Shown here piece by piece: positions 12,101 to 18,100 of a stretch of 64,000 nt of DNA (its first letter is position 1; every line of letters begins with the position of its first letter). The stretch spans positions 45,780,437 through 45,844,436 of the forward strand of contig OZ029914.1 of NCBI GenBank assembly GCA_964023275.1. The letters are read 5' to 3'. The position numbers were made by a program, and so were the translations under genes. Under the pieces are notes generated by a model. That model was not told the DNA's origin, did no database searches, and was given only the letters and a program-made list of their open reading frames with translations. This DNA comes from Norana najaformis. Lineage: Eukaryota > Annelida > Clitellata > Crassiclitellata > Hormogastridae.

Positions 12101-15100
12101 CAGGTTGTGGAGAAACAGTATATACTGATTCCAACGGATATATTTCCTCTCCGAATTGGCCGAATGGCTACGGATACAATCAGAACTGCTCCAACATCAT
12201 CTGGGCTCCACAGCGAAGCATGTTTCGCCTTTACTTTTATTCTATCGACCTACAAGACTGTTGCAGTTGCGACTGGCTAGAGGTATATTACCTGTAGTCA
12301 TAGTGATTATGTCCAGACTTCTATAGCGCTAAAAGAAAGCTGAGTCTCTGTTACCAGCTTATTCCAAGTCGAGTAATTAGTCACATCAACTGGATAGACA
12401 GGAATTTTAGCCAGCGTGTTGTGCCAACACAATTATCTGGCGTCTTGTTTTATCTTCTTTGTATTACCTTCTTCGATTGCGCGCTTGTCCTGTATCCTAA
12501 CGATTGTGAACGTTTCGTTTGAGGATCCTGAACAAGTTGTGTGCACACACTTGCCTTGCGCCTCAGATTCAGGTTAACTTACTCTACCTTGCTACCGTAA
12601 CAGTATTCCGCTGGCGTCTGAAGACTGTGCTGTTCAACAGTAATTTTACTTTTTCGTTCGGAAGCACCTCTGTTGAGTTTTTCCTCTAAGGGGTGCTTTA
12701 TAAATCTCAAATTACAATTACAATTACAAAATGCAAATTCAAGACTACCTCCGCTATGCTGCTTTAAACGAGGCAATAACGACTGCCTTGTGTTCAAAGT
12801 ATACTCTTTACTTGTCCGATGAAAGTGTTATAAGGTATTACGCGTGTAATGACGGTCAGCAATTGCAATACAGTGGATAGGGCTATTAGTATATGATTGG
12901 TGACTTTTTCCTAGGTAAATTGTCTAGACAATTCGGATTATCGTGCGATTAGATATTGCTACAACTATGATAATTTCTACCATAACATATACAACTGCAG
13001 TCAAGTGCTTTTGTGGTTCCACAGCGATGGTTCCGGCAACTTTTTAGGATTCTATATCAAGTACAACGTCTATCCGGATGAAGGTAGATACAAACGACTT
13101 CATAAAACATTGCAGCCTTTTGGATTGGGGCCAGGCTTTATATCAAGCGTGCTGAAACACATATACTTACGTACAAACATTAGTAAATACATACAGGCGC
13201 TTCATACATATATACATACATTAATGCTAGCATCATACGTGCATCATGCATACATATACACACAATCACACATACTACTTATATATTAGCATTTACATAC
13301 AAACGCTTTCACACGTGCTTACAGATATACTTAAAAATACAAACTTACATACATACGTATATATTGTCAACCGTCAGCATATTTAGATGCTTCTAGCTGA
13401 TGACGTTTTGTGACTATGCGCATTTGTATTGTATTTGTCAATATTTACAAGAGACATTACATAAGAAAACCAACTCATAGACCACGTTTTTCTAGTCCTT
13501 TAGATGAAATATAAAGGTGAAGGTAAAATTTAACTCGTTCCACAAGAAATGCGTTTTTATGACTTCCGGAGTTTGAAAATCCTGAGTCTGCGACGATATT
13601 TAAGATCTTGAGCAACTCACAATTATTCTCGCACGATGTACTTATCGCTAGTGATAAAGCCTTATCTTTAAAGTCTTATTTAATGGTGCTACGCGAAAAT
13701 TCACGTACAGTATGCATCGTCAGCAGCAGCAAAAAGAATTTTGTGATTTTTGTGCCAATGCAATCTTCAAACTGAGCCATATCACAGTTGTCCAATTAGT
13801 CCACCGTAATTAATGCATCATCACGTCTATCCAAAAGCAGGTTGATACAGACAATATTTTGAATATTGCAACCCATTTGTCTGGGTCTAGGATCAGTCGT
13901 ATTGATGCACACTTACTTACGTATATACATTAATATATACATACATATACTACATACATGCATACCTAAGTACATGTAAACATACTGTCTGTACAAAAAT
14001 TCATATATACTTGGCACATGCATCATATATATATATATATATATATATATATATATATATATATATATATATATATATATATATATATATATATATATAT
14101 ATATATATATATATATATATATATATATATATATATATATATATATATATATATATATATATATATATATATATAAACATATTTACATTCACACACAGTT
14201 GCATACATTTATACATGTAAGTGCATTGATACATACTTACCTACATGTATACATACATACGTATATACATGCAAACATATATAAGCACATACATACAAAC
14301 GCATACATGCATTTATACATATATACATAAGCAAATACATATTGTCAACCGTCACCATAGTTAGATGCTTTTCGGCTGATGATTTTTCGTTGCCATACAC
14401 TTTTCTAATCTGTTTGTCGATACTTATACGAGAGATTTCATTAAAAAGCAGTTAACGCTCTTCTGGTAACTGTAGATGAAAATAATAAAGTGAAGACGAA
14501 TGTTACCCACAAGAAATGCGTTTAGTTACATAAGGCGCTCGAATATCCTATAAGACTGCGGGGTATACTTGGCGCCAAGGATGAGCCTTATCAAAGTCTT
14601 AAATAACACTGGCCAACACATAATTTGTTGCCTCAAATGTTAGAACTGTTTCTGGGTATATTTGACCTGCTGATTCCAGAAAAGGCACCAGTTTTCTCCC
14701 AGCAGGTCTAGTTTTCGAGATATAGAACATTATGCCATATACCAGTCCTTGCCTCTGCTCGCCCATAAAACATAAGGCTATAGCTATAATTATGTAGTGC
14801 TCAATTTATTATGTGATACACTAAATAAACATAATAATACAAATACTTAAAAGAAAATGGTAGTACCTGAAACTGTACTTATATGATACCAAACAGAACA
14901 AGTTTGTTATAAAAATTTCAAGTCATTCGACACCGAAGAAGCTCCTTTTGTACGATTTCCGAGTGTGGCATCTGCCGGAACAATCGCGCATAATATTCCA
15001 GCAATAGTCTGCCATCATGTGTGCATCCCATCTTCCTTGATATCGATTTTCCATTGATGTCTTGGTGAAATCTTTCACCTTGCTCTTCGCTGAAGTCACC

Positions 15101-18100
15101 AAAATTCTCTGGAAAGCGATCTAAGTGACTGTGGAGATAATGGACTTTAATGCTCATGTTGCAGCCAAGCTTGTTGAAATGAAGAAGCATATCCTCTACT
15201 AGTTGTGCATGATGGTCTGCCTTCTTGTTGCCAAGAAAATTTTTAGTTACAAGAACAAAGGAAGACCAGGCACAAGATTCGATTTCATTCATTGATGGTA
15301 TGAAAAGTGGGTCATTCATAAGTTGCCTGATCTGTGGACCATCGAAGATTCCAGCCTTCAATTTTTCCATGGTAATTCCTGGTAACTTGTGTACTATGTA
15401 TTCGAAGCATGAACCTTCTTTATTCAAAGCCCTGACAAATTGTTTCATCAGGCCTAGCTTTATATGTAGTGGTGGCAGTATGATCCTATCTCGTGCCACC
15501 AAAGATTCCTTGATTACATTTTGAGCTCCAACCACCATGTCTTTCCTCGAAGGCCAATCTTTTCTTGTCCAATGTTCATGCTTGGCTCTACTGTCCCAAA
15601 GACACAAAAAGCAGGGATACTTTGTGTAGCCACTTTGTTGACCAAGGAGGAAATTTACCATCTTCAAGTCTACACAAATTACCCATTGATGTTCTTTGTA
15701 TTGTATCTTTTCCAGTACTAAAGAGATGGCATTGTACTCTTCTTTCATCCTGGTGGAGTGACCGATTGGAATAGAACCAAATTTGTTGCCGTTATTTAAA
15801 AGCACACATTTCAGACTACGTTTTGAACTGTCGATAAAAAGACGCCACTCATCTGGGCTGTAATCCGACAGACCAATTTTCTTCAATAAGTTGCTGATGT
15901 CATTACAGAATACTAGGTTGTTGTCTTCGGTAAAGAATGGCGGCAAATCCTTTTCTCTGTTTCTATAAATTGTAATTTTCGTTCCAGGCTGAAGTGCATT
16001 CTTTTCCTTTAGTCTGGACGCAAGCAATTCAGAGGACTCTTTGGAAAGATTTAAGTCCCTGATCAGATCACTCAACTCTTTTTGGTCAAAACGTTCACTG
16101 TGTGAAGTTGATTGGAAATCACTGTCACTGCCCCCACTTTCTTCACTTTCGTCATCTTGTCCGATATTGGACATGCAAGTCTCATCGTCTGAGAGCTGAG
16201 GTAGTTCGCGAAAAGGTGGAACTGGTACAATATCCGAATGCGGAACAGGTCTCCTGGCTGAAGGTATATCAGGGTAAGACAACTTGTGACGATTATTTCG
16301 ATTGATGCCTATGATATTAACCATACAAAAGTAACAGTCGTCGAAGTGGTTTATCTGTTCCCTCCAAACCATCGGTACACCAAATTTCAGGCAGCTTCTC
16401 TTTCCAGTTGTCCAGTGGCGCAATTGTTCAATACAAGTTTTGCATACTGTATGAGGAGCCCATTGCTTATCTTGATCTCCAAGTTTGACACCAAAATAAC
16501 CTACATATGCTCTTTTTACAAACTCAGAAATCGGTTTCCTGTTTGCTTTTAGTGTGTATTCCCCACAAATGTAGCAGAATATGTCTGGATGGTTAATGCA
16601 GCTCCGTCTGGAAGTAGCCATAACCTTAAGGATGTTCGCATCTGAGGAATTAAGTGACTAACCTAAAAAATAGTAAGAACATGTAGTTATTTAATGTTCA
16701 CATTCACAGATTGTTCTTGCGACCAACTCTTAATATGCCCTAAGACGACTGCGGCTGCTCTAGCTTTCAGGAGGCGGTTTATATAGGCTATAAATGCTGA
16801 CTTCAGCATAATCTATTTACATAGTTCGAAACCATGAAACGCTGTATAAGCACAAATAAATTCTAAATGAGGCCATGAATTTAGTGCTGAGTAAGCTGTA
16901 GGCTACGGAATAGTTATTTCGTTGAATCAGCAATATCTCAGCACGCGGCAAGATATGCTGATTTTACATTATAAGGATGTAGGCATTATATGAATCAGCA
17001 AGAATTATAATTAGCCATAAATAAAGCTTATTATGACATTTTAGTTTTGTCAAAGACATCGTTTAAAGAGTGGACTGGGTTTTCTTTACAAAATCGACGA
17101 TATCTCAGAAACTAGACCTGATGCACTCAATCCAATGACATTTTCTGAATCAGCGCCCAAAATTACCCCAAGAACAGGTCTAAAACCGAAGGCAACAAGA
17201 AAAAAATTTTTTTCTGTTGGCCAGTGTAATGGTTCTACTTGAAAATTTACGTATTCATCTGCAGCAGCAGCAACAACAACTTTGTGCTCATTTTGTGTTA
17301 ATAGAATTTTCAAAGCAAGCCATATCACATTTGACTAATTAGTCTCACTGTGGATCATCACAAATATATTTCTTTACATAAATGTAATTAAAAACACTAG
17401 GAAGTGATTAATTATTTTAGCAGTTACAGAACCTACGACTGAAGGTAGTACCACGCATACTTCACCAGGTGATTAAATGTTTTTATGTTTTTAGTACTTA
17501 GTCTGGCAGGAGATTTGCCGTTCATGTCTCAGCAATACTAAGATTTATTCGCAATCGTAATCGTAATCTCAAGATTTCTGCTGCGCCCAGAAATCCAACT
17601 CGATCTGTTACAGGCTCTCAGTAAAAAACAAAATCGCTAGACAGAGGGAGGGTTTGGTTCGGTTCCAGGTGAAGTTCCATGGGCCAAAGAGGCAGACAAT
17701 CAGACGGCTACGTTGGATATTGTCTGGAATTGAAGCGGAGAGAGAGATTAGGGGAAGAGGAAAAATCACGATGGGATTTGTGGAAGAACAGTATTTTCAG
17801 GTTTCAGTGAAAGATCTGTGCAGAAATTGAAATAGGTGAAGTGTTGGAAGATCATGTTGGAAGTGACCAAATGTTGAAGATTTATGCCTGACTTTTAAAA
17901 TTTTCCTAATATTGGAAAATGTGCTTTACTCATAGTCAACGAAATGCTTCTTTTCAACCTCTTTTTAGCCCATATACTCCTAAATGCACTATTTTGGGTA
18001 ATTAAGTTTTAAGAAAACAGTAACAAAACAGAAATTTTAAGTTTTCTTTGCAATAGCAATCCCTTATCTTGCCAGGTTTTACTGGTAGTTAGCGTGACCG

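What the first reader, a model, noticed from the sequence alone, without database searches (positions are those of the whole stretch)
14607..17226. Apparently intact CACTG-ended transposon with a one-ORF, 567-aa transposase
Twelve exact terminal bases (CACTGGCCAACA) plus roughly 120 bp of imperfect inverted repeat, a TAA target duplication and a matching empty paralogous site define the element precisely. Its ORF has a D-D-CxxC-E layout and three N-terminal CxxC pairs. Proteins like this are often annotated as uncharacterised; the ends given here would tie that family to a mobile element. The CMC assignment is my inference.
Basis: partly seen in the sequence, partly recalled or inferred. Interest (0 to 1): 0.7.

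Follow-up and report, generated by a model that had tools for sequence, protein, structure and literature searches.

The report
Intact Chapaev3-like animal DNA transposon
This looks like one complete cut-and-paste jumping gene of a known animal family (the Chapaev branch of the CACTA-like transposons), sitting in a cluster of duplicated CUB-domain genes; it is well preserved but ordinary in kind.

Summary
Window 14607-17226 (2,620 bp) has exact 12-bp inverted ends (CACTGGCCAACA) within a longer imperfect inverted repeat, a flanking TAA duplication and one intact 567-aa ORF on the minus strand. Five related flank copies in the window lack the insert; the closest has a single TAA at 25099-25101.

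The CMC guess is supported and can be narrowed. The site reads A-TAA-[element]-TAA-T, as reported for Chapaev3 (TWA between A and T; PMC4079192). Termini are CAC...GTG. C(2)C, an LH and H(4)H lie in order between D318 and E516. Size (2,620 bp, 567 aa, one ORF) is close to Garfield_BM (2,289 bp, 556 aa).

Not shown: homology to a named Chapaev3 protein, copy number, activity or fold. No relative was found in the collections searched, which hold few animal sequences; the window's genome search did not complete; both structure models were too poor (mean pLDDT 34.7 and 36.4).

Verdict: new member of a known kind. Chapaev3 elements with these hallmarks are already in print.

The parts
14604..14606 (.). 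left TAA target-site duplication, preceded by A (14603)
14607..14618 (+). exact 12-bp left terminus CACTGGCCAACA
14619..14734 (+). rest of left imperfect terminal inverted repeat (inner boundary approximate)
14805..14810 (-). AATAAA polyadenylation-like signal, 113 bp past the end of the ORF, inside the element
14918..16621 (-). 567-aa transposase ORF: D264, D318, C337xxC340, L385-H386, H494xxxxH499, E516
16391..16576 (-). residues 16-77: weak zf-AD (ZAD)-like cysteine region, below Pfam's cut-off
   Evidence: 18.3 bits, cut-off 28, E 0.0027
17089..17214 (-). rest of right imperfect terminal inverted repeat (inner boundary approximate)
17215..17226 (-). exact 12-bp right terminus
17227..17229 (.). 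right TAA target-site duplication, followed by T (17230)
24844..25340 (+). closest paralogous empty site; single TAA at 25099-25101

Best explanation
An autonomous-looking cut-and-paste DNA transposon of the Chapaev3 group (CMC supergroup), inserted in an apparently non-coding stretch that is repeated through a CUB-gene cluster. Shown: the ends, the duplication, the empty sites and the intact ORF. Inferred from the group: the N-terminal cysteine-rich region and the long inverted repeats serve end recognition; an RNase H-like DDE core (D264, D318, E516, with a C(2)C/H(4)H site between) cuts at the CAC ends and joins them across a staggered cut in ATWAT, giving a 3-bp TWA duplication.
For: CAC...GTG termini, a TWA duplication and the flanking A and T match the hallmarks quoted for Chapaev3 (PMC4079192 passages and section 14); ATWAT starts at 314 of 63,996 window positions, 0.5%. 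Between D318 and E516 there is one C(2)C (C337/C340) and one H(4)H (H494/H499, the only HxxxxH in the protein), with L385-H386 between them. 2,620 bp and 567 aa in one ORF, against 2,289 bp and 556 aa for Garfield_BM; most Chapaev3 transposases other than Merrow and Garfield appear to have a single exon. Empty sites. Both weak models give three strands and a helix in RNase H order, with D264 in the first strand and E516 in a helix; the core model also has a fourth strand ending just before D318.
Against: One copy only, so the duplication rule rests on one site. No Chapaev3 protein sequence was available to align. The short motifs are weak on their own: CxxC occurs four times in the protein and LH three times, all three LH between D318 and E516, and C(2)C with H(3-4)H is shared by the wider group. 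Pfam gives no transposase domain. The structure models are of very low confidence. No relative in viral contigs (4 scans), genome contigs (2 scans), plasmids or phages; these hold viral and prokaryotic records, so that is weak.
Confidence: 0.75

Rival explanations
1. A member of another CMC-type lineage (animal EnSpm/CACTA, or an unnamed one) that shares CACTG ends and a 3-bp duplication but is not Chapaev3.
For: CAC...GTG ends and 3-bp duplications are also called consistent with EnSpm (PMC12730594 passages). CNIRT6, a CMC element with hits to CACTA transposases, begins CACTG (PMC12810828 passages). A tree in that paper holds a clade of unclassified animal transposases next to Chapaev and Mirage (section 8), which could not be compared with this protein.
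Against: No Pfam Transposase_21 match, a domain shown for the CACTA-superfamily element SmTRC1 (PMC1636069 passages). The animal CACTA-type elements seen in the passages make 2-bp duplications (SmTRC1; Spongebob; ENS1_Cis). The compact single ORF and the A-TWA-T site fit Chapaev3 better.
Confidence: 0.2
2. A transposase gene domesticated by the host, with remnant ends.
For: A single copy with an intact ORF in the window (tblastn at E up to 10 gives only two chance-level further matches, E 0.17 and 9).
Against: Both termini and the duplication are intact, and empty paralogous sites break exactly at the ends, as expected of an insertion not long kept as a host gene.
Confidence: 0.04
3. A chance inverted repeat around an unrelated ORF.
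For: None found.
Against: Repeat alignment score 96 against a shuffle maximum of 48; only pair of its kind in the window; empty sites break at the ends.
Confidence: 0.01

Closest known systems
Chapaev3 transposons (Garfield, Merrow, Conan; PMC4079192, passages and section 14)
   Same: CAC...GTG ends, TWA duplication between A and T, C(2)C, LH and H(4)H motifs; Garfield_BM is 2,289 bp with a 556-aa transposase
   Different: One ORF here against two exons in Garfield and Merrow (most other Chapaev3 appear to have one); protein homology not tested
EnSpm/CACTA-type elements, such as CNIRT6 (PMC12810828, passages)
   Same: CACTG ends in CNIRT6, CMC-type DDE transposase; 3-bp duplications in EnSpm (PMC12730594, passages)
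   Different: CNIRT6 is about 7.5 kb; no Transposase_21 domain detected here
CNEST (PMC12810828, section 8)
   Same: CMC supergroup, CAC ends
   Different: 2-bp TA duplication, ends CACGG, about 7.2 kb
Transib/RAG1
   Same: C(2)C and H(3-4)H between second D and E; CA...TG ends in most of the wider group (PMC12730594, passages)
   Different: Transib makes 5-bp duplications (recalled), here 3 bp; no RAG1 match in Pfam or PDB sequences at E up to 10

Membership tests
[quoted passage not shown]
Chapaev3 | 3-bp TWA duplication | tested here: met
   TAA; one site only
Chapaev3 | A before and T after the duplication | tested here: met
   A 14603, T 17230
Chapaev3 | C(2)C, LH and H(4)H motifs | tested here: met
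   C337/C340, L385-H386, H494/H499; LH occurs three times in the protein, so it is weak alone
Chapaev3 | DDE RNase H-like core | tested here: inconclusive
   residues present; models of mean pLDDT 34.7 and 36.4
Chapaev3 | N-terminal Chapa zinc-finger domain (PMC4411706 passages) | tested here: inconclusive
   three N-terminal CxxC pairs and a weak zf-AD match below cut-off; no Chapa model on hand
Chapaev3 | transposase clusters with Chapaev3 proteins | not testable with these tools
   no Chapaev3 protein was reached in any collection searched
EnSpm/CACTA | Transposase_21 domain in the protein (as in SmTRC1) | tested here: not met
EnSpm/CACTA | CACTA ends | tested here: not met
   CACTG; but CNIRT6, with hits to CACTA transposases, also has CACTG
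Transib | 5-bp duplication (recalled) | tested here: not met
   3 bp

The most novel reading that the evidence does not exclude
The protein belongs to a CMC sublineage, distinct from the published Chapaev3 families, whose N terminus is a ZAD-type zinc-binding domain; such transposases would then be a possible source of the ZAD of arthropod zinc-finger transcription factors. It rests on one Pfam match below the cut-off.
Probability: 0.1. Interest if true: 0.5.

Novelty: new member of a known kind. Interest (0 to 1): 0.22.

Why it matters
It gives a precisely bounded, apparently complete Chapaev3-like element with an intact transposase ORF. The biology of Chapaev elements was called largely uncharacterised in 2014 (PMC4079192), so an intact copy is a usable candidate for an excision assay. 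It does not change the classification of transposons.

Tried and rejected
Relatives were sought by the search for related loci in viral contigs (4 scans) and genome contigs (2 scans), and by tblastn in plasmids and phages: none. PDB sequences gave only chance-level matches (best E 1.5, best E 0.094), and NCBIfam, a prokaryotic library, none. CNEST, TRC and Transib were set aside on duplication length or ends (the Transib length is recalled). Lanisha could not be judged: the only transposon paper among the 10 listed of 23 names it, and the passages I saw do not give the features needed. A literature search for four peptides (three of the window protein, one recalled variant) found 0 papers. A search for papers with at least two of CACTGGCCAA, CACTGGCC and Chapaev counted 41; none of the 10 listed holds Chapaev. 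One search for ZAD with transposase gave one paper, on Drosophila germ cells, of which I saw the listing. PMC3630058 (passage) lists Chapaev3 copies in a fly and added nothing. No fold search was obtained; the models would have been too weak to use. The PHROGs and PADLOC libraries were not run.

Full report
What is there. The stretch 14607-17226 begins and ends with exact inverted copies of CACTGGCCAACA. The inverted repeat continues inward at 69.6% identity over 112 aligned columns, and the two 170-bp ends score 96 in local alignment against at most 48 in 1000 shuffles of one end. TAA flanks both ends. Among 142 exact 12-bp inverted pairs with starts 1-6 kb apart in the window, this is the only one with identical 3-bp flanks.

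Empty sites. The joined flanks match five other places in the window across the junction without the insert: 24844-25340, 44447-44957, 61358-61742, 13337-13807 and 40844-41226. The closest reads TCTTATATAATGG, where the filled site reads TCTTAAATAA[element]TAATGG. The copies near 61k and 13k also read TAATGG at the junction; those near 44k and 40k have diverged there and show no TAA. So the element, with a 3-bp duplication, was added to a sequence that is repeated through the window. That sequence lies among CUB-domain coding stretches: one ORF matches Pfam CUB at E 1.6e-9, and its translation has 16 tblastn matches in the window at E up to 1e-3, itself included. I take this for an animal genome from that content; the species was not determined.

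The gene. One intact ORF on the minus strand, 567 aa, in a stop-to-stop frame of 579 codons against at most 169 in 300 shuffles of the element. An AATAAA-like signal lies 113 bp past its end, inside the element. No second copy lies in the window: the two further tblastn matches are at chance level, E 0.17 and 9. Pfam finds only a weak zf-AD match at residues 16-77 (E 0.0027, 18.3 bits, cut-off 28) and a weaker DZR_2 one.

Classification. PMC4079192 (passages and section 14 read) gives CAC and GTG termini, TWA duplications between A and T for the Chapaev3 elements examined, and the C(2)C, LH and H(4)H motifs of Chapaev transposases. All are met here: A 14603, TAA, T 17230; C337/C340, L385-H386, H494/H499, then E516. 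The motifs are short: CxxC occurs four times and LH three times in the protein, while HxxxxH occurs once. Garfield_BM of that group is 2,289 bp with 556 aa. [quoted passage not shown]

What is not shown. No Chapaev3 protein could be fetched for alignment. The window's own genome search was sent 13 times and not answered, so copy number is unknown. Two single-sequence structure predictions have mean pLDDT 34.7 and 36.4. In both, D264 lies in the first of three strands followed by a helix and E516 lies in a helix; in the core model D318 directly follows a fourth strand. That is the RNase H order, but at this confidence it supports little, and distances between the residues were not measured. The unclassified animal transposases that PMC12810828 puts beside Chapaev and Mirage (section 8) could not be compared.

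Mechanism. Cut-and-paste by a DDE transposase is inferred from the family; excision and mobility were not tested. The intact ORF, ends and duplication make this copy a plausible autonomous element.

Novelty. Element type, ends, duplication and protein motifs are those of a published group, so this is filed as a new member of a known kind, with protein homology still to be tested. The most novel reading left open is a ZAD-like N terminus on a separate CMC sublineage, at low probability.

Noticed in passing
window 335-62740, 16 tblastn matches: A cluster of repeated CUB-domain coding stretches with related non-coding stretches between them; 5 of the 16 aligned rows hold in-frame stops, some near the edge of the match where an intron may begin.
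   Followed up: partly
window 23652-24491 (-): Tc1-like transposase ORF (HTH_Tnp_Tc3_2 E 5.9e-14) whose C-terminal end runs into a 6-bp tandem repeat (23666-23690), so it looks cut short.
   Followed up: partly
window 1253-1954 and 22436-23122 (+): ORFs that look by eye like pieces of non-LTR retrotransposon proteins (weak Pfam matches below cut-off: DUF6451 for the first, RVT_1 for the second); a run of aspartates lies near the end of the first and a run of isoleucines near the end of the second.
   Followed up: partly
window 14025-14175: A perfect 151-bp AT dinucleotide run about 430 bp left of the element.
   Followed up: no
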